A program made the translations under genes and the position numbers. From contig NC_089727.1 in NCBI RefSeq assembly GCF_035083965.1, positions 6,081,501-6,145,500 of the forward strand: a stretch of DNA of 64,000 nucleotides, written 5' to 3'. Below the pieces are notes generated by a model that was given only the letters and a program-made list of their open reading frames with translations, searched no databases and had not been told where the DNA came from. Shown here piece after piece: positions 9,884 through 63,443 of the stretch. The stretch's first letter is position 1, and the number at the start of each line of letters is the position of its first letter. Source of the stretch: Branchiostoma lanceolatum. Its lineage: Eukaryota; Chordata; Leptocardii; Amphioxiformes; Branchiostomatidae.

Positions 9884-10823
9884 CGCCGAAGGGCGATTGT
9901 ACCGACTATACAGATACAAATACACTCACGCACTAAAAATAATAGAATCACATTGTGAATATGAAGTTCAAGTGACAAGGTGGTGGATCATGTGACCTAC
10001 ACGTAACCATCTCCTATGACGTCATAGCCAGACGAATCAACATCTTTTCTCCTCACTCCTCCTTCGGCAGCTGTTGCAGGACGCAGCGTCTTAGAAAGCT
10101 ACAGTTTAAGGTCAGCAAAGTTTCTTGAACAACGTAGGAAGATTGAGATTGAGTGCATTTCAAAACATAGCTTTGCAGTTCATTCACAAAATGATTTAGC
10201 TGTTTTTTTTCTCATCAGGTATGATCAGTGCAAAGAAAAGAGACACTCCTTGCTTTTTGTTTGGTAGCCTGATTAAATCGCACCATTACAGCCTCGGACA
10301 GCGGAGTCTGCGTTACACAGATAATGTTGCAGATAACTTTAATTTTCATCAATGCATACTAAATTGATATTATTTGATATGTAGGACACCAGAGTAGAAC
10401 ACGAGACGTTCAATCTGCGAGCACAAAGAAGAAGAGTGGCGAAAGAAACCGAGAGCCGGTCTTCTCAGCGGCAAGATCGCCTTCCAGCCGAGAACAGGAA
10501 CGGCGGTGTGTCCAGCAAGTCCTGTCAGTGACAGCGGTTAGACATAGTACTTAATAGTTTCAAGATTTACATTGACTGTATATCACTTAACAGTTTCAAT
10601 ATTTTCATTGATTGTAAACAACATCATCAGTCTATTGCTGTTACAAACTGGTCTGTTGTTGGATGTGGCCTGAAGTTGGAGCAATGAGCTGCTATATGCA
10701 GACCGTGAAGTGAGAAAGGATCTTTGTTTGACTTTCAGAAACTGTAGGTAAAACGATTGTTCCTTAAAGAACGAAAAAGGTTCTACATTTGTCACTGTGG
10801 AAAACGTGTGAGGGAAGCGCAGC
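9884..10823. other. Upstream region of the LRR gene
   Basis: No protein-coding exon recognised. It presumably holds the promoter and 5' UTR of the LRR receptor that starts at 10824. A minus-strand frame (10583-11065) is antisense to that gene's start and is not supported as a gene. Confidence 0.4.
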
Positions 10824-12779
10824 ATGATAGTCGCTCTGGTTTGGGTCCTCACATTTCTAACCGGGCCGTACAATTGTGAACCTTCGGCACTTTCACGTCT
10901 GCGATCTAAAGGATGTATCGTTGAAAATCGTTGGCATAAACATGGTTTAATATTACTCCAAATAAATTGTGACAGCACAGGCTTAACGAATGTTCCCAAA
11001 GAACTGCCCCCAAACCTTACTTGGCTTAAGCTTCCCAACAACGCCCTAACCACATTCCCTTGCATGTCCCTGTCCTACATGTATTTGACTTACATGATCT
11101 TAAGAAACAATAGCATCAGTTACTTCCCTTCGTACTGTCTGAAGAGGATGCCCAGGCTAAAAGAATTGGATTTGTCACATAATCAGCTGTTCTGTGTCAA
11201 CCTGTATCCTGTGAAGTCCCTCGTACCAAACTTGAGAGAGGTTGACGTTTCTTACAATAGCATAAAGACATTGTCTATGTGCGATGTTGGGTGGGACTTG
11301 CACAGAAACAAAGAAGAAATGTTGCCATACGGACTTGTCATAAAGAGCAACCCTTTCCATTGTGACTGCAACATAGCTTGGCTGATTCTCTATGCAAAAC
11401 TCACGGAAAAATGCCGAAACAAAACATCACCAAAATGCAAAAAATTATTCTGGGTAAATGCCAATGCACGCGCCATGTACAAAGACCAATCTTTGTTTCG
11501 CTGTGAAACACCATCAGAAGTAGAGAACGTAGAGCTCCACAGGTTAAAGGGGAATATCTCACGATGTTTTCAGGTCTGGGATCCAGCAGGCGAAGATTAT
11601 GTAACCTACAAACCTGAGCCCTGTGATCCTAACAGTTACTATCCCACAGAACGCCAAGATCTCAGTCCCTCTGAAAGGTGCAATGCTCACTCTGTACCCA
11701 TGACAGAAAGGCCAGAGAATCATGATACGTCATCTCCTCAAACCGTTGCCATGGCATCAGGCTGGGCGATGACTACAAACGTTACTGATGGTGTCATGAC
11801 AGCAGCTAGAACCTTTAGTCCGCTGACAGCATACAATGCTCACTCTGCACCCATGACGGAAATGTCAGAAAACCAGGAGACGTCCTCCTCACAAACCGTT
11901 GCCATGGCATCAGGCTGGGTGGTGACTGGAACAGTAGTTGGAGTGAGTGTTGTCGTGTGTGGTGTGGTGTTAGTCACGTATTGTGCCCTTGGTAGGAAAC
12001 ATCATGATAACACTGTCCCACTTGGTCACGTGGTGGGTTTTCATCAGGATAGCCCGGCTGATGGTCAGGAAGGCTGTAGAAACGGTCCGGAAACAGACTC
12101 AGATTCCTGCAGGTGCGAAACTATACCTGACACAATTGAACCGTATGTTTATGATGTACCGCAATGCCATTTTGGCGAAGTAGAAACTGCAGGTGAAACC
12201 ACTCATATGAATAATGAATGTGCCAGCACTTTGAAAGGTCCAGGTGCACAGGACTGTGATCATACTGGCCGCATTGGGGAAGCTTCCGATGTTGATAATC
12301 AGATGTCAGAGTCCTGCCTGGATGAGGTTGAGCCTAACACGATCGAACCGTATGCACAGTCGCCTCATATTTTCGATGTACCGCAATACGATTTTGCAGA
12401 AGTAGAAACTGCAGGTAAAACCAGTATTAAGAAGAAAGAAGGTACCAGTTCCCTAATATGTGACCCTAACAGTATTTGCAATTGTAGAGACGTTTTCGAT
12501 GACGATAGAGTTGATACTCAGCCGCCAAAATCAGATACTAGTCAGTCCTCCATGTACAAAACTACACCCAGCATTATTGAATCTTATGCAAAGTCACGTC
12601 ATGTTTTCGACGCATATCAACGTGAACATACCGACCGCAGTGGAGAAGGTTCAAAAACGTACGGAATGGATGAGATTAAGCAGTATGCTCGTTCAACTGT
12701 CTATTCTTCTGAGCATGTAAATCAAAACACACCGAGCTTATACTCTCAAAACTCTAAAGAGACAAGGAAGTTATCATGA
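10824..12779 (+). CDS. Single-exon leucine-rich-repeat transmembrane receptor
   Basis: A 651-residue, apparently intronless type I membrane protein. Residues 1-18 are a signal peptide (MIVALVWVLTFLTG). Extracellular LRRs follow at about 45-165 (NLTWLKLPNNALTTFP, LKELDLSHNQL, LREVDVSYNSI). An LRR C-terminal cap starts near residue 173 (NPFHCDCNIAWL) and carries further cysteines. The stalk (about 270-360) contains a duplicated Ser/Thr-rich block with the shared words NAHS.PMTE and SSQTVAMASGW. A transmembrane helix spans about 366-390. The cytoplasmic tail has three diverged copies of an acidic/tyrosine unit (IEPYVYDVPQ, IEPYAQSPHIFDVPQ, IIESYAKSRHVFDA). YDVP is a YxxP motif of the kind that binds Crk-type SH2 domains when phosphorylated (known from p130Cas); signalling here is inference. 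The ATG is chosen because it begins the signal peptide. Ligand unknown; no one-to-one vertebrate orthologue recognised. Confidence 0.85.
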   Translation: MIVALVWVLTFLTGPYNCEPSALSRLRSKGCIVENRWHKHGLILLQINCDSTGLTNVPKELPPNLTWLKLPNNALTTFPCMSLSYMYLTYMILRNNSISYFPSYCLKRMPRLKELDLSHNQLFCVNLYPVKSLVPNLREVDVSYNSIKTLSMCDVGWDLHRNKEEMLPYGLVIKSNPFHCDCNIAWLILYAKLTEKCRNKTSPKCKKLFWVNANARAMYKDQSLFRCETPSEVENVELHRLKGNISRCFQVWDPAGEDYVTYKPEPCDPNSYYPTERQDLSPSERCNAHSVPMTERPENHDTSSPQTVAMASGWAMTTNVTDGVMTAARTFSPLTAYNAHSAPMTEMSENQETSSSQTVAMASGWVVTGTVVGVSVVVCGVVLVTYCALGRKHHDNTVPLGHVVGFHQDSPADGQEGCRNGPETDSDSCRCETIPDTIEPYVYDVPQCHFGEVETAGETTHMNNECASTLKGPGAQDCDHTGRIGEASDVDNQMSESCLDEVEPNTIEPYAQSPHIFDVPQYDFAEVETAGKTSIKKKEGTSSLICDPNSICNCRDVFDDDRVDTQPPKSDTSQSSMYKTTPSIIESYAKSRHVFDAYQREHTDRSGEGSKTYGMDEIKQYARSTVYSSEHVNQNTPSLYSQNSKETRKLS

Positions 12780-15368: not shown

Positions 15369-17480
15369 ATGGCGACCGCAGAATTTCCAACAGACATTGG
15401 TGTCGACTTTCTGCAGTGTACGGTCTGCTGCGACACTTTTAAGGAGCCGAAGACTCTCATTCCCTGCCTTCATACCTTCTGCAAATCGTGTTTGAAGGAA
15501 TGTGTCACAAAGCAACGTGTCAGTCATCTTTCTTGTCCGCTCTGTCGCCAGGAGGTGCCTATTCCTGAGGATGGAGTCGAGGGGCTCAAGAATAACTCTT
15601 TCATCGCAAGTCTTGTTGCAGCCGTTCAGGACTACATCAAAATACGCGAAAACCCCAGCAAAATCCTCTGTTCCCACTGCGACGCCGGTGCCGTGGCGAC
15701 GTCCAGGTGTGTGGAGTGTGCCGAGTTTCTCTGCCACAGTTGTGAATCCGCCCACCGTCGTCTGAAATCCACAAATGGACACACGCGTCTCACCATAGAT
15801 GAGCTACAAACGGGGGAACACGGCGACAAACTCCGTGCAAAAAGGATCCCGAAATGCGAGGTTCATCCTAGTAAAACGGTGTGGTTATACTGCACAACGT
15901 GCGACGTTCCCATCTGCAGGGAATGTGCAGGCACCGACCACCAAGAGCCTGCGCACCAGCACGAAGAGTTGAGCCAGGCAGCAGCGGAGAGAAAGAAGAC
16001 GATCAAAGATCTCATCGCGCGATGCCAATGGCAGGTCCAAAATCTACACAAGCATGAGAAGATGCTAGCAAAGATGGAGTCGTACCTCGAGGAAAACGAG
16101 GAGAAAGCAAAAGCTGAGGTCACTACGAACATGAAACGGCTCATCACCATTATCCAGCAAGAAGAGACTGTTATGCTCGACTCTATAACAATGGCTGCAG
16201 AGCAGCAAAGAAAGAAATTACAGGGCCAACTGGAAGAGAAGCAAACCTCGCTCGCAAGCGCGAAGAGAACTTGTGACTTCGCGATGGCACTAGCACGGGA
16301 AGGGGACATCTTTGAAATGCTGACCTTCAGCAAGGAAATAGAGCAACGTCTGCACAGCATCGCAGCGCAACCCAGCACAGGCCCTGGTGCTGATCTGGCG
16401 AAAATCACCGTAGAATATGGCAGTCTCAAGCAACAACTAAAAACGGACTTTCCAAAGAATACCAAGTACCGTATATGTGAAAACAAAATGCATGAGATAT
16501 TGGGACCTTCGGACAAATCAATTACAGCCGCAAGTTTATTGGCACCGTCACGGCAACGGTGAGTAACATCTTTAAATGGATATTGCTCGTTCTTGTCCCT
16601 CCTAAGTCTGGGCTTGGTACATTTGTATGCACCCTATTGACGTTTCATTATTTGTTTATCATTTATTTATTTTGAACGACAAACTTACATGCACACGGAA
16701 TGGCTTGTGCCTCCCTGAATTATGTAGAGTTTGTTACAACGGGTTATTAAAACATGTAAGAGCAAAATACACAACAGCATATTTACAATTTTTCGAAGAA
16801 AACACGACAGCCGGAAATGTGCTAGTAAGAGACCTAAACAATAAATTCATTGCAGAGTCTTGCGGCACAATGTAAGAAAGGACAATTCTTGGACTAGCTC
16901 TAGTTCGCTCCTCTGATCGCTTCTCTGTAGACTATTCGGCAAGGGAAGCGATAGGAGGAGGGAACCGGAGGTAGAATAGGATGGATACCAGGTTACATCC
17001 TCTTCTCCCTGACGCTCATCCCCACATTGCTTTATAGTATTTTCACGCTGATTTGTTAAACCATTTGTAATCACATGCCACGTTCCTGATACTGAACAGT
17101 TTTGTTATTGTCCTAAACCTGATGGTTTTCCAAGTGCATCATCTCTATTCTCCAAGCAGAGGTTTCGGTCTGAGGGCTACTAATGGCCCGATTTTTTAAC
17201 GTCTCTCTCCTTTCAAGGAAGGGATCGCGGCCACTACTAGCCCCAAGACAGAATCCTCTGCCTAGAGAATGTATCCTCTCAGCAAAAGCAGTAAAGTTCA
17301 TACTGACCACCCTAGCAGTAATTTGCAGAACCATCGTCACTCGTTTGTCAATAATATTTCTTTCATTTGTCGCAATCTAGTTCCCGAAGTTGGAGTCCAC
17401 CTGACCGACCACCAGAAGACATCCCCCTCCAGCACGGCCGGAGTATGGCTAACGTTGTATGGCACCTGATGGGCCGGTAG
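15369..17480 (+). CDS. TRIM-family RING/B-box/coiled-coil protein
   Basis: The main exon runs 15369-16558. It begins MATAEFPTDIGVDFLQC and encodes a C3HC4 RING at about residues 17-59 (CTVCCDTF, CLHTFCKSC, CPLC). B-box 1 is near 101-145 (CSHCDAG.. CVECAEFLCHSC) and B-box 2 near 164-200 (CEVHPSKTVWLYC). A long charged coiled coil covers about 205-330. This is the E3 ubiquitin ligase tripartite motif. An in-frame ATG at 15252 exists, but 15369 matches the start of the paralogue at 23711-22466 and has a better context. The frame runs into TGA at 16562, but that stop lies inside a strong donor (CG|GTGAGT). Splicing to an acceptor at 17380/17381 would add 33 residues in phase and stop at 17480; this last exon is inference. 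AATAAA follows at 17713. The RING-to-coiled-coil part is secure. Confidence 0.8.
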
Positions 17481-18830: not shown

Positions 18831-21800
18831 TTAGGGATTGGTCTTCATAAGCCCTGTCGGCCCTGTCGGCCAAGATCCATCAGTGTTTTGGTCCTCAATC
18901 ATGATGATCTGTTAGAAAAAAAAAAACTTTGCTGATACGACAGAACATTTTTGAATAGAAACTGTGGATAATTGATTAATATCAATATCAGTGAGAGAAA
19001 TAACAATAACGTTGACCATGATGAAGTAACTGTATGTATACACATTGTCATGTAGTACTTGTTGATAACTTAATGGTCAAGCCTTTTGCAGTTCAAGCAA
19101 TGAGTTACACTTTGTTTCAGTTTTTGTTTAAAAAAAAAACGTCATCAAATATTCGTCCAACACACTTAAACTTTACCACCCCAACATTTAAAAACCGATT
19201 TGCTGATACAAAAAAGGCATCGCTCTCCACCAGGACAACCGTGTGTGAAATAGCTATAATACATTCTGATCCGTTGAAGCTTAGGCAATAACGTGCATTT
19301 AACAGATGTGACAAAATGTGCAGCTTACCTGGCCATTATAGAGTCCTGAATCCTCAACAGTGTTTTCGGGTTTGTTTAGATGCTCATGTGTGTTAGACAT
19401 GTACCACAAACGCACACACCGGTTCTTTGGAATGTTGAAGAGAACCCTCATGTCTTTTTCCACTTGGCCTAGGTTAGAAAATAATTTGTGTTGAGGATGA
19501 GAAATGTGATTACTGAAATGTTATTATAGTATCTGCAAAAAGATGGTCATGTCTACACAGGTATCCATAAGCTAGCGGTGAGTGAATGCCAGCACCAACT
19601 AAAGCAACATAATCATATTCAGAAAGAAAAGAAGCCATACGGTTCTTCTGCATTAGAATTTGGGGTTTTACCTATTGTGTCCAGTTTGCTGAACTGTTGA
19701 ATGACACAGTGATCCATGTTGGAATGCCTGCACAGCTTCAGCTCCATCGGGTACACTTCTACTTTGCAGTGTTTTACAAACATTCCATGCTCAACCACCT
19801 GTAAGGGGTTAGTAAAAATGGAATAACAAAAGTGTTAATGACTACTCAGAAAGTATGGAATATACATATAACACACACACAAACACACATGCACACACAC
19901 AAATGTACACACACACACACATGTAGACACGCACACACATATGCACACGCATGTACACATATAAACATATACACATTTACACATTCAAACACATGTACAC
20001 ATACACACACATGCACTCAAATGTTAACAAACAAAAACACATACATGCACACACACACACAATGTACCCAAACACAGACACACACAAACACATGAACAAA
20101 CACATGCATACAAACACACACACTTGTACCCCCCCCCCCCATGCACACACATGGACAAACACATGCACACAAACACACATGCACACAAACATACATTTAC
20201 GCAAAAAAACAAATACATACACATACACATACACACACACACATGCACACACACACACACACATAACCACTCACATTCCACCTGTACCCATCCTATATAC
20301 ATTCCACAGTCGTACCTTACGGGGGATGGCGTGGCGTTCTTTGATTCCGTACCAGGAGACAAGTCTACAGAATGCCTCCACAGGAACAAGCCAGTAATCA
20401 AACTGGTCGATCAGATGTTCTGTCAGGAAACAAGCATCCGGATGCTTTGAGTCTGGCGGAAGAAATGTAATCCATGTAATGTCATTCTTGTTGGACATAT
20501 AAGCAATTCCTGGCTTATCATATCTATCGAGCAGGCTTCTATTGCTAATAAAATTCAGAGCACAGAGACTATAAGCATACAAAATGACTTTTCAGCACTT
20601 TTGATCATTTGGTCTCATACATATAACATGTAGATAAGCATCTCAGCCAAAGCTGATCGATCATGACTTGATTATATGGATGACATCTGCGCAAGCATCA
20701 TTTTTTGTCCATTTCCAGAAGGAAGTGGCTACTGACAGGATGATCCTGTCAGCAGTAGAAAAATTTGCACTGCTGACAGGATCATCCTGAACATATCTAA
20801 AATTGATGGTTTCTAGCACAGCAGTGTCCGAGATCGTGCTGTGATGATGGCCTCCATCCAGGGAAACACCAATATCCGTTGGTATACTAGTACAGTATGC
20901 AGCTGGCTTCTGATTGGTACAGTAGCATATGCAGCTGGCTTCTGATTGGAACAGTAGCATATGCAGCTGGCTTCTGATTGGTACACTAGCATATGCAGCT
21001 GGCTTCTGATTGGTTGTCAACAATTCATTGAAATAAATGATGAATTGATTTACAGTATGGTTGCAAACTGTTATTGTCTGGAAAGCCTGAGGCTATCGAC
21101 AAAAGGATGATCCTGTCAGCAGTGCAAATTTGAATCAGTACAGAATAAGCTTAAAAAAAACATACTTTAAATCCTCAGCAAAGTCTTCCAAAGTCAAAGA
21201 AGAAGATGTTAAAAAAGAACAAAATAGAGAATGTTTTGTTTGGTATACCTTGTTCTATGTGTTCACTCATTTGTTGAACATTCCTGACCACTTAACGTTA
21301 GATTTCATAATGAATGAAAATTTTCTGGACCAACCTTCTGTCCAGATCAGTTTTTGGAGTGCCCATAATTACAAAAGCACAAATAAAAAGAATAAAAAAC
21401 TGTACATCATAGCAGTTTGAAGCTGACTTTAGGTTACTAAGAACTAGGAATGTTACCTTTGAGCAGAACAGAGTTGTCAATCGGCCCCGGATGACATGCT
21501 GTGTTACCTATCCCGTACACATCCCAGGAGTCATAGCCCACGTACTTCTTCCACTGTCTCCACCACTTGGCATCCACAAGGAACCTGTAGTGACATAAAA
21601 TTGTCAATTTGAATTAAAGTTACAAGGTATTAATTTCACCGAGTTGGTTATTGGGAATTGTGCCTGACACCTATATATACAGTGGCCGGATTTGTGGTAA
21701 AAAGACTATGGCCGGTATAACCGCCATTCGGTGTAACACACCAGCATCGCAGACATGTGGCACAACAGGAGCTGGTTATATTACACTAATGACCTGTCAC

Positions 21801-22019
21801 ATTTAACCTAACCTACCTAAGTCCCAGAGCATAGGATCCGGAGGCCGTGTATGCCTTCAAATCTACAAACATCTACCGAACAATCAAGCAATCAACAAGA
21901 CACCTACCAAGTGTCTCCCTTCTTTAGTTCCTTCCTCATTTCTGCAGAGATTGAGGATTTTTGTACCTCTGCATCTGGGGGCTCTTCCCGTGAGACACAT
22001 GGTGTGTATAGAGACCAAC
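18831..22019 (-). CDS. DUSP and ubiquitin-like domain exons, USP4/USP15-like, no protease domain
   Basis: Six exons (22019-21908, 21584-21457, 20452-20316, 19798-19672, 19468-19329, 18908-18831). They encode a DUSP fold ([11 protein letters not shown], then [69 protein letters not shown]). A UBL fold follows ([46 protein letters not shown]). The order and the residues at the exon joint after GDTW match vertebrate USP4/USP15 as I know them. The frame ends MKTNP-stop. The catalytic Cys and His boxes are absent, so it cannot be an active deubiquitinase on this evidence. A 9-bp direct repeat (ccgacaggg twice) near the end adds one Pro-Thr-Gly. Introns hold a CA-rich tract and a MITE. Confidence 0.85.
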
Positions 22020-22059
22020 CTTCAGGGGTGCAGGGGTGAAAGAAGAATTGAAAATCATG

Positions 22060-22097
<38 letters not shown>

Positions 22098-23711
22098 AAA
22101 CACCACACAAACATATAACGGTTATATTTATTTAATACAGTTGAGGGAAAAATTAAGAAAGGAAAATGTGACTTGCAAAACAAAATTGAAAGAAAGAAAA
22201 GAACAATGTCGTCCTTACCAGCAATCAAAATAAATAAATTTCAAAGTTCTATTGTACTGAAAATTAAAGATGTACATTGTATTACAGACAGGATAGATAA
22301 TTCATCCTGGATTATTGGATCAAGCAGCATCATCTTTGTGTGCTTTACAAATGTTATCCAACATGGTGCAGATGATGTCAAATGAAAAGCCTGTATATTG
22401 ATGGTCTTCACTTCTAATATACATACAGAATCATATTCTCAATCTGTGGCATACAGTACAATTACCTTCAACTGTCTCTTTCAAATTTCCTGGTGTACAT
22501 GGAACCTCTAGGTCCTGGTTCAGAGGAAAATCCTTGCTCGTTGATTGTGACGCATCTTTCAGGGCAGAACTCAGTTCTTTCGTAGTTGATTTTGGCAGGC
22601 AATATCTAGCAGTTTGAGGGGTGTTTGTCGTTAATTTCTGCCTCATGACCGAGTAATCCACGGTAATGTTCGCACGTTCAAAATCCACTTTGTCCTCAGG
22701 AAGTTTGCTCAGCTCTTTCAGCCTCATTGTCATATCTTGTGAGAAAGATACAACTTCGTAGTCGCTTCCCTCCCGAGCTAGAGTCTCTGCGAACTCACAT
22801 GTACTCTTGGCGCTGGCCAGACTGATCTGCGCTCCCTCTATCTCTGCTTCTATCTGCTTCTTCCTGGTTGTTTCTTCTGTATCAATACAGGTTAGGACCT
22901 GTTCGCCCTCTTCCTTTACCAGTGCAATCAGTGTTTGTACGGTTTTATGGATGTTCTGACGAGCCTCTTCTGTATTGTGTAGAAGATTTACCTTCAAACG
23001 CTTGTGTGCTTCCTCTGTCCGCTGGAGGAACGGCATTCGGGCCTGGCACTGTGGTGTGAGATCTAAGATCAGCTTCCTCTTCTTTGCAGCAACGTCTGAC
23101 ATGTGTGCAAAGTCGTGTTGCGACTCTCTGTGTTCAAACAAGGCACATTCGTTGCATATAAGTGTCTTACAGGTCCTACAGTAGAGCTTCAGGATTTCTC
23201 CCGAATGTTTAGAGCACGACGGAGCTTTCTTGGCCCTGAATACATTGTCGTATTTTCCCGTTTTCAGTTCCTCAAACGTGAATAGCGTGTGACCCTTGGT
23301 AGCTCTCACACGGCGATGCGCCGACTCACAACTCTCACACAGAAACTCAGCACACTCAGAACACCTGGATGTGGCTGGCTTCCCTTCCTCACAACTGGTA
23401 CACAGAATACCATCCTTACCGTTGCGAACCTTGTGATGCTCGGCCACAGCTTCAGATAGACTGGCGATGAAGAAGTTGTTCTTCAGACCATCCACGCCAT
23501 TTTCTGGCAGGGGAATCTGTTGTCGACAGACGGGGCATGGGAAACTGTCCCCCTGGTTTCTCTGGACCCATTCCTTCAGGCACGGCGCACAGAAGGTGTG
23601 CAGACAGGGAATGAGAACCTTCGGGTTCGTAAAGGTGTCGCAACAGATCGTACACTTGAGGAAATCGTCGCTGATTTTGTCTGGCAGAGCCGCGGTCGCC
23701 ATGATGTTCAT
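18831..23711 (-). CDS. Predicted chimera: RING-B-box-coiled-coil (TRIM) fused to DUSP-UBL of USP4/15 type
   Basis: Seven-exon model on the minus strand: 23711-22466, 22019-21908, 21584-21457, 20452-20316, 19798-19672, 19468-19329, 18908-18831. Every junction has GT..AG and matching phase (1,2,1,0,1,0). The predicted product is about 655 residues. The first exon carries the TRIM module. Its frame would end nine codons after a donor (GAAG|GTAATT at 22466/22465). The next acceptor with a clear pyrimidine tract (CCCTGAAG|GT at 22020/22019) joins it in frame. No separate start codon or 5' exon for the DUSP part was found. The protein stops just after the ubiquitin-like fold (GSWPTGPTG), where USP15 would continue to its protease domain. 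Known: TRIM RINGs are E3 ligases, and DUSP-UBL regions of USP4/11/15 regulate and recruit partners. Inference: one protein joins both. The alternative is two adjacent genes with an unseen 5' exon. Confidence 0.6.
19865..20275. repeat. CA/TG-rich simple sequence in an intron
   Basis: A long impure (CA)n tract mixed with ACATGCAC and ACAT words and one poly-C run. It creates spurious open frames of His/Thr-Cys/Val repeats on both strands. It lies in the intron between exons at 20316 and 19798. Confidence 0.95.
20761..21131. mobile_element. MITE with 28-bp TIRs carrying a 32-bp minisatellite
   Basis: aaatttgcactgctgacagg... at 20761-20788 is the exact inverse of the segment at 21104-21131. Inside, a 32-bp unit (tatgcagctggcttctgatt...) is repeated four times from 20896. 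The left flank has another copy of the palindromic end (ctgacaggatgatcctgtcag near 20733). Intronic, no ORF of its own. Confidence 0.75.
22066..22093. repeat. (AC)n microsatellite
   Basis: About 14 AC units followed by A8, in the intron between the TRIM exon and the first DUSP exon. Confidence 0.9.
22431..23711 (-). CDS. TRIM module exon (N-terminal half of the chimera, or a stand-alone TRIM)
   Basis: Frame of 426 residues starting [24 protein letters not shown] at about 20-62 ([24 protein letters not shown]). B-box 1 at about 104-150 ([22 protein letters not shown]). B-box 2 at about 168-205 ([21 protein letters not shown]). Coiled coil at about 210-330. A conserved tail ([14 protein letters not shown]) parallels AKITVEYGSLKQQL in the TRIM at 15369. 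The two genes are therefore paralogues, in convergent orientation about 6 kb apart. If unspliced it terminates at 22431. If the donor at 22465 is used, it continues into the DUSP-UBL exons. Confidence 0.9.
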   Translation of the reverse strand: MNIMATAALPDKISDDFLKCTICCDTFTNPKVLIPCLHTFCAPCLKEWVQRNQGDSFPCPVCRQQIPLPENGVDGLKNNFFIASLSEAVAEHHKVRNGKDGILCTSCEEGKPATSRCSECAEFLCESCESAHRRVRATKGHTLFTFEELKTGKYDNVFRAKKAPSCSKHSGEILKLYCRTCKTLICNECALFEHRESQHDFAHMSDVAAKKRKLILDLTPQCQARMPFLQRTEEAHKRLKVNLLHNTEEARQNIHKTVQTLIALVKEEGEQVLTCIDTEETTRKKQIEAEIEGAQISLASAKSTCEFAETLAREGSDYEVVSFSQDMTMRLKELSKLPEDKVDFERANITVDYSVMRQKLTTNTPQTARYCLPKSTTKELSSALKDASQSTSKDFPLNQDLEVPCTPGNLKETVEGNCTVCHRLRI

Positions 23712-25732: not shown

Positions 25733-28700
25733 TTAGCCTCGGAACACAGACTTCTCGAGCCCGTCGATGTCGTCGTTGCTGTACTCAAGAAGACTCTCGT
25801 GGAAAGTCGAGTCATACTTGCCGCATGTCCGCACGTATTCCGCGTACTCGGGAGCCCCAGGTTTGATGATGTTGTCAGCTACTACTACAGTACCTGGGGG
25901 CATAATACATAAGTTTGATTTCCAGAAAAATTGCAAGGTAAAATATTTGTTTTAGGTTCTACTCAAGGAAGTAGTCTGGAGTGAATAACAGCTAAACAAT
26001 AGCCTTTCACGAACCTATTAAACAGGCTTCTCGTAATTGTGAAGCCCACCCTTTTTGATGTGTCAGTGAATCGGGCTAGACGTAATTTTTATTTCACTTT
26101 TCATAGGTAACGTGCATTTTATACTATCTTTATACGGCCGCGGCAACATCTATCAACAACACATGGTGGCGACACATTCAAGTTGTAGACGTATCTTCAT
26201 GCCACCACTAAAACAGAACAAAAAGACAATACATAGATACAAAGCAAATTTATACAATCGACATGAGCACCTTTGCGTAGAAGCTTGTTTGTCTCCAGTA
26301 GTTTAATATCCCTGACGTAAAATTTCTTCCGGTGGTCTATAAACACCATGTCAAGCGTTTCTACGTCATGCTTTGTCTTCAGCTGGGGGATGACGTCAGC
26401 GGTGTCAGAACTGATCTGGATAATCTGTGACAAATTTCATGATATGTCAATGAAGAATTCCTGAAATGACAACGTGTTTAGATATCATTGAATGATGCCG
26501 TGGTGCCATTTCACTTTCCCCAGCACAAAGTATTTTGATTAGTTATAGGTATGTATTATTTTATTTTTACCTGTGTAAATAAAAAAATAAATGTGGTTAG
26601 GGTTATTGACTTATAATCTAAAGTTTCTGGGTTCAAATCCCTTGCAGGCCCCAGTGTTGTGCGGCTTGGGGAAGTCCCTTTACATCCATTTCCTCACTCC
26701 TACTTATAGAAATGAGTAGGGGTCCAACTCGGTGTAAGCATTACAGTCTGGTCTCACACAGCCTGTACCTACTACCTACTGTATAATACTGTTATGTTAC
26801 GCTAAAGGTGGTTTACTGAGCGACCGTACAGCAACCAAAATTTGACTTGTGTAACCCTTGGTTTCATAATTGGAATAGAAGGACAACAAAACACAAAGTA
26901 AAGAATCGTTCTTTAACTATGGAAATCGTTGAGCTAGATACCTTTTTTTGTTCGAATTCGCTCAGCGGGCGCAGTCTCTAGTAGAAATGAGAACCAAATT
27001 ACCCTGTTCTGCAGCCCTGCAAATTCGATCATCTCCCTGGCAACCGCGGCGTACTTTTCATTGAACTCCACGGTCATGAACTTGGCAGTTTCCGGCAGCA
27101 GCCTGACGGTCCTGATGGCGGAGTAACCCATGTACGTGCCCAGCTCCAGCATGGTCTGGGGCGCCGTCTCCTTCACGAACTGGTCCAGGATAGCTCCTGT
27201 AGGTGTGATAATTATAATAATGATAATCAATAACTAACTGTACGTGCCCAGCTCCAGCATGGTCTGAGGCGCAGTCTCCTTCACGAACCGGGTCCAGGAT
27301 CTGTCCCGTAGGTTTGATATTCATATACTAGTAGTAAAGATGATTATCACATAGCCAGATAGCGTCGACAAATCAGAAGCCTCCATTGCCCATGTGTTAT
27401 AACGCCATAACACACCCTTGTCATAACACACCACTTCATGACGCCATAACACAACCGTTCCTTTTTGTAGAGGGGGATCTTTTTTATGAATCTTTTTCTT
27501 ACCCTTGTATCGAAAAATATATTTTCTCAAAATTCACAAAATCTTCTTAGAATACATTGAAAAATGAACAATTTCTAATAACCATTGCATCAAGATTTCC
27601 CCCTGGACACAAGGACTCCTCCCAACTTTTCACAGGCCGATCTATAAGTGTGGTCATACCAGGCTGTCTTGCCTTTTCTACCCCACCCCACAACTGCTCT
27701 TTGGACAATAGCACTTACCACACACGTACATTACATATCAAGCGATGATATTTTACCTTTGACATCCCCAACATTCATGGCCCACTCCGTCTCCCAGCCG
27801 AACTTGTCCACTGCTGCCAGGACGCTGTCCGGGTCCCCACGTGACGCGTTCTGCTGAACATACAGCAGGACGCGCTGTTCTTTACTCATGGCTGAAAGGT
27901 AAATTGTGAAACTCGAATGATGCAAACAGAAGTCGGAAAAGACCGCACAAGACATACATTAAACTTGTAGATGCCAGCGGTATGAACCTACATCAACTAC
28001 CTCCATCGATGGATGACAGAGTTATGGAGAAGAATGAGCCTTTACCGGCCACGCTCCAGACGTGAATGTTGGCCAGCCAGTAGATACAGTTTGCCACGTA
28101 CCTATCGGCTGGCCAACTTTGGTCTATTTGGCCGATTTCTACTCTTTCCAGCCACGTCTGGAGCCTGGTAGAGGCTAGAGAAAAATAGTCATGGGAAGAT
28201 TCCGAGTGAGCTCGACGGAGTGAGTGATCAGTGTGAGTGAAAAGTAAAATGATTCTCGAGACAAGACGAGACGACTGTTGTAACATGTTAGAAGAGTGAA
28301 TGCGAAATGGACGTCCGGACTTTGGAATATTCCAAAGTCCGGACGCCATTTTGACTTTGACTTTATTTGGGATCCACATTAGCACAATTTTGTATTCTCT
28401 TCTAACATGTTTCAAAGTGAACATAGTTCACAAAGTGTCATTAGATAGAAAGGCAGGCCTCGGTAGAACCTGCTAAGGAGACTACAATTACGTGGTCATA
28501 ACCGTAGTATGTAAGGTTGAGTTTTGAAGATGGACACTTTCCATATTTTCAGGGTCATATTTTCTAATTGAAATGGACTTCAATGCTTTAAAGAACATCT
28601 TACCAAATAACTTAAACCAAATAAACCCTTACCGTTTGTCTCGGAAGAGAAGAGAGAAGATCAGCTGCGCTTTTCCGTAAAGTGAGCACATATATACGTG
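25733..28700 (-). CDS. COMT: Catechol O-methyltransferase-like, copy A
   Basis: Coding exons on the minus strand: 27891-27757 (ATG at 27889), 27196-27003, 26424-26271, 25893-25733. All junctions are in phase (1,0,1). A non-coding 5' exon probably ends at donor 28646 (ACAAACG|GTAAGG). The product is about 213 residues, close to soluble COMT. SAM-binding motif [13 protein letters not shown], then FMTVEF. Metal site in DMVFIDH and ADN (Asp141, Asp169, Asn170 in rat numbering) and Glu in SLLEYS (Glu199). The catalytic Lys (DHRK) is kept, but Trp143 before it is Arg in this copy. Predicted reaction: SAM- and Mg-dependent methylation of catechols in the cytosol. Candidate AATAAA sites follow the stop at 25618-25623 and 25572-25577. 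It is a tandem duplicate of copy B. The second intron holds a decayed extra fragment of exon 3 (27236-27316), the third a MITE and a SINE relic. Confidence 0.88.
26593..26775 (+). mobile_element. tRNA-derived SINE relic (1)
   Basis: The head resembles a pol III promoter: an A-box-like tggttagggtta and a B box in gggttcaaatccc. The body 'aggccccagtgttgtg..cttggggaagtccctttaca' is shared with the elements near 31052 and 45640. Located in a COMT-A intron. Too diverged for a functional tRNA. Confidence 0.6.
26811..26990. mobile_element. Degenerate MITE of the gaccaaa..tttgtgtaacccttgg family
   Basis: The core words actgagcgaccgtacagcaacc, cttgtgtaacccttggttt and aacacaaagtaaagaatcgt match the interior of elements at 5553, 9634 and 39576. 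The right end gctcagcgggcgcag lies close to exon 3 of COMT-A. Confidence 0.55.
27236..27316 (-). pseudogene. Duplicated 5' fragment of COMT-A exon 3
   Basis: About 65 bp matching the start of exon 3 (27196 downward) plus its upstream intron end. The copy carries GTTCGTGAAGGAGAC and CCATGCTGGAGCTGGGC. The acceptor AG is lost here (cctacGGG instead of cctacAG), so it should not be spliced in. Four better-preserved fragments of the same kind sit in COMT-B. Confidence 0.8.
28276..28411. mobile_element. Fold-back element with perfect 32-bp central palindrome
   Basis: The outer ends taacatgttagaagag and ctcttctaacatgt are inverted. At 28312-28343 gtccggactttggaat is followed by its exact inverse. 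It lies in the first intron of COMT-A. Confidence 0.65.
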
Positions 28701-29832: not shown

Positions 29833-32800
29833 TTAGCCTCGGAACACAGACTTCTCGAGCCCGTCGATGTCGTCCTTGCTGTACTCAAGAAGACTCTCGT
29901 GGAAAGTCGAGTCATACTTGCCGCATGTCCGCACGTAGTCCGCATAGTCTGGAGCACCAGGGTAGATGATGTTGTCAGCTACTACTACAGTACCTGGGGG
30001 CATAAAATATATTGTATAAGTTTGATTTCCAAAGATATGTTTTAAACGTCGATGAAGATTAGACATCCAGGTAATAAGATACGCCAAAAAAGCAGTTACT
30101 CAAGCAACGGGATATGATTTTGCAAACGGTCAGACGTTTCAAGTAGCTCGACTAAACTTGCTCACAGTCACTGACGAAAAGTAGTGGATGTTACTTGAAA
30201 CGTCTGACCGTTTCCAAAACCATATCCAGTTGCTTGAGTAACTGCTGTTTTGGCGAATATGTTTTAAATTTTGCAGAAAGAAGTAGGCTGGGCGGAATAT
30301 AAGCTAAACAGCTTAGCCCGGAGTCCAGCCTTGTTAGATTTATCAATATATTTTAGTACAGTTACTGTATGCTACATTCAGCGATTGCTATTCTGACTCC
30401 AGGCTACAATAACCTTTCGTTCACCTGGCAAACATTTCATCTAATTCATCATTTATCTATCAAACCCCCACTCAGGTCACAAGTTTGACCTGTTTTACAG
30501 GCTACTATTTTCAATACAACAATGAATCGGACTCAATATTGTTATTTACGTCTGCAAGTAAGGTATGTTTTATACTACTGACTACCTTTGCGTAGTAACT
30601 TGTTTGTCTCCAGTAGTTTGATATCCCTGCGGTATACGTCCTTCCAGTGGTCTATAAACACCATGTCAAGCGTTTCTACGTCATACTTCGTCTTCAGCTG
30701 GGGAATGACGTCAGCGGTGTCAGATGTGATCTGGACAATCTGAGAAAAAATTATTTCAAGTCATGACATATCAAAAAGACTGGCAATGAAGAATTGCCGA
30801 GGTGATAACGTGTTCAGATATCCTTGAATGGTGCAATGGTGGCAACATAGGCTTGTGGCTAGAGATATTGACTTAAAATCCCCTGCAGGCCCCAGTGTTG
30901 TGCCTTAACACCTATTTTCTTACTTGACTCAGGTGGAAATGAGAACTTGGCGTTGATAAGGGACGTCCTCTCGTGAATACGCGAAGTAGTAAAAACACTG
31001 ACAATAAACGATTCATGTGATGAACTAGTTGAAAGGTACAATGATAGCAAGGTGGCACTGTGGTTATGGGTTTTTGACTCAAAATCTGAAGGTTCTGTGT
31101 TCGAACCCCAAGCAGGCCCCAATATTGTACCTTGGGAAAAAGCCCACATAATTCCTCACACGACTCACGTGAAAATGATGGAATGTAAGTGACGTCACCG
31201 CTGGAACGTAAAGCCGGAGGCCCCGCGTTTGAGGGGAGCCACCAATCTCACCATAAAGAGCAGGGGTCCATCCCAGTGTAAGTACCTTACAGTACTACTC
31301 TTGTACCTACTGTAGAAAACTGATGTGTCACGCTAAAAGTGTTTTACCGGATAGACCCCCTCTATGAAAATCGTTGAGCGAGCTGCCAAATTTTTGTTCG
31401 AATTTGCTCAGCGGGCGCAGGCTTTAGTTAGACTCTACCAGTCTCCCCCGGTCGCTGGGAAAATAGTAGAAATTGGCCAAATAGAGTCAAATGGCTCGGT
31501 TGCCAATTTGACCCTCTCTCCGTAGCCGACTCCCTTCAAACATTTGACTCTATTTGGCCAATTTCTACTATTTTCCCAGCGACCGGGGGAGACTGGTAGA
31601 GTCTAGGCTTTAGTGGAAATGCGAAACAAATTACCCTGTTTTGTAGCCCTGCAAATGCGATCATCTCCCTGGCAACGGCGGCGTTCTCTTGATCGAACTC
31701 CACGGTGATGAACTTGGCAGTTTCCGGCAGCAACCTGACGGTCCTGATGGCGGAGTAACCCATGTACGTACCCAGCTCCAGCATGGTCTGAGGCGCCGTC
31801 TCCTCCACGAACCGGTCCAGGATCGCTCCTGTAGGTTTGATAATTATAATTATGATAATTAATAACTGTACGTGCCCAGCTCCAGCATGGTCTGGGGCGC
31901 CGTCTCCTTCACGAACCGGTCCAGGATCGCTCCTGTAGGTTTGATAATTATAATTATGATAATTAATAACTGTACGTGCCCAGCTCCAGCATGGTCTGGG
32001 GCGCCGTCTCCTTCACGAACCGGTCCAGGATCGCTCCTGTAGGTTTGATAATTATAATTATGATAATTAATAACTGTACGTGCCCAGCTCCAGCATGGTC
32101 TGGGGCGCCGTCTCCTTCACGAACCGGTCCAGGATCGCTCCTGTAGGTTTGATGATTATAATAATGATAATCAATAACTGTACGTGCCCAGCTCCAGCAT
32201 GGTCTGAGGCGCAGTCTCCTTCACGAACCGGTCCAGGTCGCTCCTGTAGGTTTGATAATTATAATAACGATGATTGATAACTTTATACAAATCCATGTCC
32301 GAGGGCTAGTTACAAGCAAAACGAAACAATTGTAAACCCCGTGTGTATACATAACAGAGAAGAAAAAAAATGGAATACATGTACTTAAATCAATGGAGAA
32401 ATGATAACGTTTCTAAATCTGTTTCTACTCTGAAAGTATAACACAGAACTAAATTACAGGTACCGGTTCTGAATGTTTCCTGGCAGGTTTTACTTAGTTG
32501 CTGTGGGATCGATGTTTATAAAAATAAAAACCTTGGTAAAATTTCACCTTAGCTTAAGGAGAGAAATTCTTATAATTTAGTTATCATCCAAGGTTGAAAA
32601 TAACAATAAATTATATAAAGCTGACGTCGATCAATGGTATATACCACTAGCTAGCTAGCTAGTTTTAATGAAGATCTGCAATGTGTGGAGCATAAATACA
32701 CAAGACAGCTGACCAAAATGCAGAGTCCAAACGGAGTGAACATACAGTACAGCTGATGATCTGTTAAGAAACTGTATTACTTCAAGATTTATAAATACCC

Positions 32801-55426: not shown

Positions 55427-63443
<8,017 letters not shown>

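What the first reader, a model, noticed from the sequence alone, without database searches (positions are those of the whole stretch)
18831..23711. A TRIM-DUSP-UBL chimera: E3-ligase module spliced to the regulatory half of a deubiquitinase
Seen: a RING-B-box-coiled-coil exon has a donor nine codons before its stop. The next acceptor joins in the same phase to five further junctions encoding the DUSP and UBL of a USP4/15-like protein, which ends in a stop right after the UBL. No own start exon for the DUSP part and no protease exons were found. Known: TRIM RINGs conjugate ubiquitin, and DUSP-UBL segments of USP4/11/15 control their protease and recruit substrates. Inference: exon shuffling made a ligase that uses deubiquitinase targeting domains, possibly to compete with or steer a USP15-type enzyme. 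I know of no described protein with this order.
Basis: partly seen in the sequence, partly recalled or inferred. Interest (0 to 1): 0.88.

Follow-up and report, generated by a model that had tools for sequence, protein, structure and literature searches.

The report
TRIM ubiquitin ligase carrying deubiquitinase docking domains
A lancelet gene joins the ubiquitin-attaching half of a TRIM protein to the docking half of a ubiquitin-removing enzyme (USP15 type), and the same unusual pairing turns up as apparently separate fusions in several other animal groups.

Summary
The chimera is real at the level of sequence and gene models. On the minus strand seven GT-AG exons (23711-18831) give one 655-aa frame: RING, two B-boxes, coiled coil, then DUSP and UBL, then a stop. 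A public Branchiostoma lanceolatum protein is identical over all 655 residues, and two B. belcheri proteins (72-73% identical) have the same order. No protease half was found in the window; lancelets have a separate full-length USP15. The arrangement is not unique: RING plus DUSP-UBL without protease occurs in 14 proteins of 13 species among the hits listed (lancelets, acorn worm, crinoids, gastropods, ray-finned fishes), in both orders. In a DUSP-UBL tree most sit beside their own lineage's USP4/15; tests reject one origin for the TRIM-first set and for the DUSP-first set. I count about six captures. Best mechanism: a dimeric TRIM ligase using DUSP-UBL as its recognition domain, acting on USP15 clients or USP15 itself. 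No function was tested and no RNA evidence seen. Ten searches of the held open literature showed no description.

The parts
22466..23711 (-). Exon 1: TRIM module (RING, two B-boxes, coiled coil), Met to the phase-1 donor
   Evidence: P0001 identical
22020..22465 (-). Intron 1; carries AATAAA at 22132 followed by a GT-rich run, the only AATAAA in the six introns (possible TRIM-only isoform; weak)
21908..22019 (-). Exon 2: linker and USP4/15-type N-terminus (first helix of DUSP), no Met before that helix
21457..21584 (-). Exon 3: DUSP
20316..20452 (-). Exon 4: DUSP, with a gap at the position of USP4 residue 113
19672..19798 (-). Exon 5: DUSP-UBL linker (GMFVKH) and start of UBL
19329..19468 (-). 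Exon 6: UBL
18831..18908 (-). Exon 7: end of UBL, short tail, stop codon 18833-18831
15369..16466 (+). Neighbouring TRIM gene (B. lanceolatum P0143, 100%), tail to tail with the chimera; B. belcheri P0144 (Bbelb_367040, 75%) is numbered next to the chimera orthologue P0002 (Bbelb_367050), both on contigs of 940,910 bases

Best explanation
This is a TRIM-type E3 ligase whose C-terminal recognition domain (the place where other TRIMs carry SPRY, NHL and the like) is the DUSP-UBL docking half of a duplicated USP15 gene. The coiled coil should pair two copies, placing two DUSP-UBLs so that weak docking gains avidity. DUSP-UBL then brings partners of the deubiquitinase to the RING, so that proteins which USP15 normally strips of ubiquitin are instead tagged. 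USP15 itself, whose insert the same module can touch in the USP4 case, may be one of them. Shown here: the gene structure, the domains, an intact RING zinc-ligand motif, conservation in two lancelet species, the lancelet USP15 parentage of the DUSP-UBL, and recurrence of the pairing in other lineages. Inferred: ligase activity, dimerisation, client binding and the direction of the effect.
For: Intact C3HC4 motif at residues 20-62 and two B-boxes above cut-off. A model from 40 rows (mean pLDDT 75, pTM 0.38) shows a RING with pLDDT about 95 and a helix at 204-314 where TRIM coiled coils lie. Both halves are conserved more than the linker: B. lanceolatum against B. belcheri P0002 is 77% in RING/B-box, 73% in the coiled coil, 77% in DUSP-UBL and 43% over 40 linker positions. 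In the search keyed on DUSP-UBL alone, 8 of the 120 listed proteins have no PF00443/PF13423 protease domain, and 7 of those 8 carry a RING (the eighth, P0004, is a lancelet model without one); 10 further hits were not listed. In the tree 10 label changes are needed and 8 are forced by starred branches. One origin is rejected for the TRIM-first rows (p 6.9e-11) and for the DUSP-first rows (p 2.2e-5). A biochemical link exists: the DU domains of USP4 and USP15 interact with E3 ligases and SART3 (PMC6333900, passages); USP15 stabilises TRIM25 (PMC8125482, passages); USP4 and Ro52 act on each other (PMC7935551, passages); an interactor table pairs USP15 with TRIM25, USP4 with TRIM21 and USP11 with PML (PMC4624187, passages). 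USP4's DUSP is listed as the RIG-I site and its DUSP-UBL as the BRAP site (PMC7935551 table). The DUSP-UBL linker that binds SART3 (GLFVKH in USP4, PMC8125482) keeps F-V-K-H in 11 of 17 protease-free rows and K-H in 15 of 17.
Against: No expression, binding or ubiquitination data. The chimeras in other phyla are annotation models that I could not check against RNA; Babylonia, Lymnaea and Ptychodera rest on one model each. DUSP-Ubl alone binds the USP4 insert or catalytic domain only weakly (about 44 and 100 uM, PMC4243247 section 10). In USP15, RIG-I binds the catalytic half and not the DUSP half (PMC4650652, passages), and the majority of USP4 substrates bind the catalytic domain (PMC7935551). 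The four lancelet rows have a gap at position 113 and lost Q114, which 46 of 47 USP rows keep, so old contacts may be gone. The TRIM coiled-coil Pfam model is below its cut-off (14.4 against 30 bits).
Confidence: 0.5

Rival explanations
1. The target is USP15 itself: the chimera binds the insert or catalytic half of USP15 in trans and either ubiquitinates it or changes its turnover, rather than acting on clients.
For: USP4 DUSP-Ubl added in trans activates the catalytic domain, speeds ubiquitin release and binds the insert (PMC4243247, passages and sections 10 and 12). E134 is kept in 17 of 17 and Y136 in 13 of 17 protease-free rows. USP4 is ubiquitinated by Ro52 (PMC7935551).
Against: Affinity in trans is weak. 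The residue corresponding to R40, whose mutation lowers USP4 activity, is basic in 42 of 47 USP rows but only 7 of 17 protease-free rows; however, three fish USP15 rows have lost it too, and the lancelet, crinoid and acorn-worm rows keep it.
Confidence: 0.2
2. Integrated decoy: DUSP-UBL is bait for a pathogen factor that attacks USP15, and the TRIM half reports or destroys it. Fast-evolving clustered immune TRIM genes repeatedly captured the same host target.
For: Repeated capture by TRIM genes; in Antedon three TRIM56-like proteins (P0172-P0174) are on contigs of the same length as chimera P0113. Captured copies have longer branches than the parent USP (Antedon 0.29 against 0.008; lancelet chimera stem 0.36 against 0.07 for the lancelet USP stem).
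Against: No pathogen factor known to me (recall, not searched) targets DUSP-UBL. Long branches also follow from relaxed constraint.
Confidence: 0.12
3. Annotation artefact or accidental partial duplicate: a dead DUSP-UBL fragment lies behind a TRIM gene and is joined only by gene finders.
For: No RNA evidence was seen. Intron 1 holds an AATAAA with a GT-rich stretch, so TRIM-only messages are possible.
Against: An open frame over seven exons; models of two lancelet species at 76-77% identity in DUSP-UBL; exon 2 has no start of its own, yet its stretch before the first Met is conserved in B. belcheri; the neighbour is conserved in B. belcheri.
Confidence: 0.08
4. Positive partnership: DUSP-UBL recruits the same scaffold as USP15 (for example a SART3-like protein), so that ligase and deubiquitinase work in turn on one complex.
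For: The SART3-binding linker motif is largely kept (PMC8125482).
Against: The lancelet copies have an altered hairpin. SART3 binding was not tested.
Confidence: 0.1

Closest known systems
USP4/USP11/USP15 deubiquitinases (DUSP-UBL family)
   Same: Same DUSP-UBL: 66% identical to lancelet USP15, about 52-56% to solved USP15/USP4 DUSP-UBL and 33-34% to USP11; best sequence match USP15 3ppa, E 5e-82; lancelet USP15 is the sister in the tree
   Different: No UCH protease; a stop follows the UBL; a TRIM module stands in front
TRIM56-like family of lancelets (NCBI's name for many members)
   Same: Exon 1 is 68-76% identical, over 59-63% of the chimera, to 14 lancelet proteins (P0121-P0134), and most of those aligned share an exon tail with GNV or similar near the junction
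   Different: Of those examined, some carry other C-terminal modules: RRM_PARP14_3, KH_DTX3L/DTC, OGFr_N; others none
Crinoid, gastropod and cyprinid DUSP-UBL-TRIM proteins (P0110, P0113, P0119, P0176, P0186, P0201)
   Same: RING/B-box plus DUSP-UBL, no protease
   Different: Reverse order, with TRIM in the place of the protease; DUSP-UBL not of one origin
Acorn-worm and catfish/pacu TRIM-DUSP-UBL proteins (P0171, P0181, P0196, P0199)
   Same: Same order as the lancelet gene
   Different: Not one clade with the lancelet DUSP-UBL (AU p 6.9e-11); P0171 has no B-box at the E cut-off used
Lymnaea P0010 (two DUSP-UBL units and a C-terminal RING) and Albula P0204 (DUSP-UBL, WWE, PARP)
   Same: DUSP-UBL without protease, joined to another module
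   Different: Lymnaea: no B-box found, RING looks IAP-like by eye only. Albula: no RING

Membership tests
TRIM/RBCC E3 ligases | N-terminal RING with eight zinc ligands | tested here: met
   PF00097 38.3 bits (cut-off 21); C3HC4 motif at residues 20-62
TRIM/RBCC E3 ligases | One or two B-boxes after the RING | tested here: met
   PF22586 at 103-142 and PF00643 at 162-201, both above cut-off
TRIM/RBCC E3 ligases | Coiled coil after the B-boxes | tested here: inconclusive
   TRIM_CC 14.4 bits, cut-off 30; predicted helix 204-314
TRIM/RBCC E3 ligases | Ubiquitin ligase activity | not testable with these tools
   needs a biochemical assay
USP4/11/15 deubiquitinases | DUSP followed by UBL | tested here: met
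   PF06337 and PF14836 above cut-off; Foldseek best matches 3pv1, 3jyu
USP4/11/15 deubiquitinases | UCH protease domain with insert | tested here: not met
   absent from the 655-aa protein; no match of P0006 219-981 in the window
USP4/11/15 deubiquitinases | Residues needed for full USP4 activity (24, 40, 51, 88-92, 134, 136) | tested here: inconclusive
   In the window protein M24, E134 and Y136 are kept; R40 is K and F51 is Y as in lancelet USP15; 88-92 reads IDQFD

The most novel reading that the evidence does not exclude
Evolution has repeatedly swapped the catalytic end of a USP15-type enzyme for a ubiquitin ligase while keeping the docking end. About six separate captures gave 'anti-USP15' ligases that reverse the sign of the same docking event. 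In the boldest form, these clustered, fast-changing TRIM fusions are integrated decoys guarding USP15 against pathogens.
Probability: 0.3. Interest if true: 0.9.

Novelty: new variant of a known kind. Interest (0 to 1): 0.76.

Why it matters
TRIM proteins and USP4/11/15 enzymes are linked in vertebrates (TRIM25-USP15, TRIM21-USP4, PML-USP11; PMC4624187, passages). Independent fusions of the two in several animal lineages make that link look like a recurring design, and they offer natural constructs to test what DUSP-UBL recognises. They also show that a public name can mislead: P0003 (B. belcheri), P0176, P0186, P0199 and P0204 (fishes) are called 'ubiquitinyl hydrolase 1' in one source although no protease domain is listed for them.

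Tried and rejected
Single ancient origin of the fusions: rejected by order and by tree tests. Common origin of the catfish/pacu and cyprinid captures was not rejected (p 0.246), so I count the fishes once, although the order is reversed and the TRIM halves are only 36-39% identical. Two separate captures in crinoids (p 0.005) could also be gene conversion with USP15; I count one. A further test (crinoids plus acorn worm) did not finish.

A hidden start for the DUSP part in exon 2's frame: none found; a start exon further upstream other than the TRIM exon was not searched for beyond that. Protease exons in the window: none found.

TRIM-only isoform through the AATAAA in intron 1: kept only as a weak lead, since one such hexamer in 446 bases is not unusual (my estimate; no shuffle control was run).

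The structure model adds little for DUSP: much of 476-513 and 545-557 has pLDDT under 50, and the fit over the whole DUSP-UBL is poor (rmsd 12-19), although Foldseek ranks USP15/USP4 first. RING matches are good (TRIM2, rmsd about 2).

Limits: one search listed 120 of 1368 hits, and P0119, one of its own query rows, is not among the 120, so the catalogue of fusions is a lower bound. The 47 USP rows of the tree were chosen by me from the hits. The groups follow architecture and taxon, but I had seen the tree first, which the AU test's p-values do not allow for; the TRIM-first group includes P0004, whose model lacks the RING. No lancelet DNA other than the window was available, so no dN/dS. No B. 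floridae chimera appeared among the listed hits; whether it is absent there is unknown.
Full report
What is in the sequence. The minus strand from 23711 to 18831 holds seven exons with GT-AG borders that read as one frame of 655 residues. Exon 1 is a TRIM module; exons 2-7 encode a DUSP and a UBL, and the stop comes 11 residues after the end of the Pfam UBL match. Donors match 6 to 8 of 9 consensus positions, and the junction between the two halves has one of the two best (8 of 9). Pfam places RING at 20-62, B-boxes at 103-142 and 162-201, DUSP at 450-543 and the UBL at 561-644. Against solved structures the DUSP-UBL part hits USP15, USP4 and USP11 chains and nothing else at E 0.001 (13 distinct sequences, best E 5e-82).

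It is an annotated lancelet gene. The spliced protein is identical over all 655 residues to P0001, an 'uncharacterized protein' of Branchiostoma lanceolatum. Two B. belcheri proteins, P0002 and P0003 (95% identical to each other), have the same order. P0002 (Bbelb_367050) and P0144 (Bbelb_367040) have neighbouring numbers and contigs of the same length, and P0144 maps to the window's next gene at 15369-16559 with 75% identity, so the local order seems shared between the species. Identity to P0002 is 77% in RING/B-box, 73% in the coiled coil and 77% in DUSP-UBL, but 43% over 40 linker positions, as expected if both halves are selected.

The protease is missing. Lancelet USP15 (P0006, 981 aa) matches the window only with pieces between residues 13 and 218; residues 219-981 have no match at E 1e-3. 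Separate full-length lancelet USP15 proteins exist (P0005, P0006; the listed names are B. floridae and a hybrid of it). Exon 2 has no Met in frame before the one in the DUSP helix, and the residues before that Met are conserved in B. belcheri, so an upstream exon in that frame must supply the start.

The TRIM exon belongs to a modular lancelet family. Close paralogues of exon 1 resemble it almost to the junction, then differ: RRM_PARP14_3 (P0125), KH_DTX3L and the start of DTC (P0126), a second RING and DTC (P0127), OGFr_N (P0131). P0004, with DUSP-UBL behind part of an RRM, and P0122, a TRIM, have contigs of the same length, and both overlap in sequence with P0135, so they may be pieces of one TRIM-RRM-DUSP-UBL gene; that is an inference. 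One ancestral exon thus seems to have been joined to several downstream modules; I did not see the DNA of those genes.

The pairing recurs. Beyond lancelets, RING plus DUSP-UBL without protease was found in Ptychodera, two crinoids, Babylonia, Lymnaea and six ray-finned fishes: with the three lancelet proteins, 14 proteins of 13 species among the 120 hits listed (of 130) and the 120 listed (of 1368); domains checked, except P0003, for which I rely on the precomputed column. TRIM comes first in lancelets, Ptychodera and catfish/pacu; DUSP-UBL comes first in crinoids, Babylonia and cyprinids; Lymnaea has two DUSP-UBL units and a C-terminal RING. Albula has DUSP-UBL with WWE and PARP domains. In one search, keyed on DUSP-UBL and not on TRIM, 8 of the 120 listed proteins lack a protease domain, and 7 of those 8 carry a RING.

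Origins. A tree of 64 DUSP-UBL rows (17 protease-free, 47 USP) puts most captured copies beside the USP of their own lineage: lancelet 100/98, Ptychodera 96/82, Anneissia 98/86, Antedon 99/92, Babylonia among caenogastropod USPs 99/96, Lymnaea C-terminal unit with Physella 99/91; the seven fish copies fall in the clade with annotated USP15 and not with USP4 (95/86). The Lymnaea N-terminal unit stands apart on a branch of 1.4. Ten changes are needed, eight forced by starred branches. The Lymnaea, Babylonia and Ptychodera rows have long branches and their exact place is less sure. Held together as one clade, the TRIM-first rows are rejected (8 rows, p 6.9e-11), as are the DUSP-first rows (6 rows, p 2.2e-5), lancelet plus Ptychodera (p 1.1e-5) and the two crinoids (p 0.005); catfish/pacu plus cyprinids are not (p 0.246). 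The groups follow architecture and taxon, but I had seen the tree before naming them. A cautious count is six captures by RING proteins: lancelet, acorn worm, crinoids, Babylonia, Lymnaea, fishes; three of these rest on one gene model each.

What the captured module keeps. Of 90 sites that are at least 90% uniform in the 47 USP rows, the 17 protease-free rows keep 86% on average. The linker that in USP4 binds SART3 keeps F-V-K-H in 11 of 17 rows. Position 40, needed for full USP4 activity (PMC4243247 section 12), is basic in 42 of 47 USPs and 7 of 17 captured copies; all seven fish copies have lost it, but so have three fish USP15 rows. All four lancelet rows have a gap at position 113 and lost Q114, which 46 of 47 USP rows keep. 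Together this fits a module kept as a docking platform; it does not prove it.

How it may work. [quoted passage not shown] BRAP is listed for USP4's DUSP-UBL and RIG-I for its DUSP (PMC7935551, passages), whereas in USP15 RIG-I binds the catalytic half (PMC4650652, passages). USP15 stabilises TRIM25 (PMC8125482, passages); USP4 and Ro52 act on each other; USP11 is tabulated with PML (PMC4624187, passages). Fusing a TRIM to DUSP-UBL fits this link. I favour a TRIM ligase using DUSP-UBL as its recognition domain on clients shared with USP15. Alternatives are that USP15 itself is the target, that the ligase sits on a shared scaffold, or that DUSP-UBL is a decoy.

Literature. Ten searches of the held open library were made. 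Four required TRIM or 'tripartite motif' together with a DUSP term (4, 0, 0 and 2 papers); one search required TRIM25 and DUSP; allowed one term to be missing. One search listed 12 of 15 papers and one search listed 10 of 22. None of the titles, abstract starts or passages I saw describes a TRIM-DUSP-UBL protein; I read no paper whole. PMC4624187, on USP4/11/15 evolution, treats the lancelet USP as single copy, and in the passages seen does not mention the chimera. Subscription papers and preprints are not covered.

Noticed in passing
lancelet proteins P0125, P0126, P0127, P0131, P0135 (not in window): The same TRIM exon family carries PARP14-type RRM, DTX3L-type KH/RING/DTC and OGFr_N modules in other lancelet genes, suggesting a family with a constant TRIM exon and interchangeable ends.
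   Followed up: partly
P0204 (Albula goreensis, 787 aa): DUSP-UBL joined to WWE and PARP domains, with the DUSP-UBL beside an Albula USP in the tree (85/90).
   Followed up: partly
P0010 (Lymnaea stagnalis, 660 aa): Two DUSP-UBL units followed by a C-terminal RING that looks IAP-like by eye.
   Followed up: partly
window 25733-27327 and 31536-32012, minus strand: ORF pieces that by eye resemble an O-methyltransferase, apparently with repeated copies of one exon; no family search was run.
   Followed up: no
window 61029-62435, plus strand: Single-exon TRIM ORF whose C-terminal half matches the later part of lancelet TRIM3 (P0148) at 27-31% identity.
   Followed up: no
window 10812-12779, plus strand: 655-aa ORF that by eye looks like a leucine-rich-repeat membrane protein.
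   Followed up: no
window 22132, minus strand: AATAAA followed by a GT-rich run inside intron 1 could allow a TRIM-only message from the same gene.
   Followed up: partly
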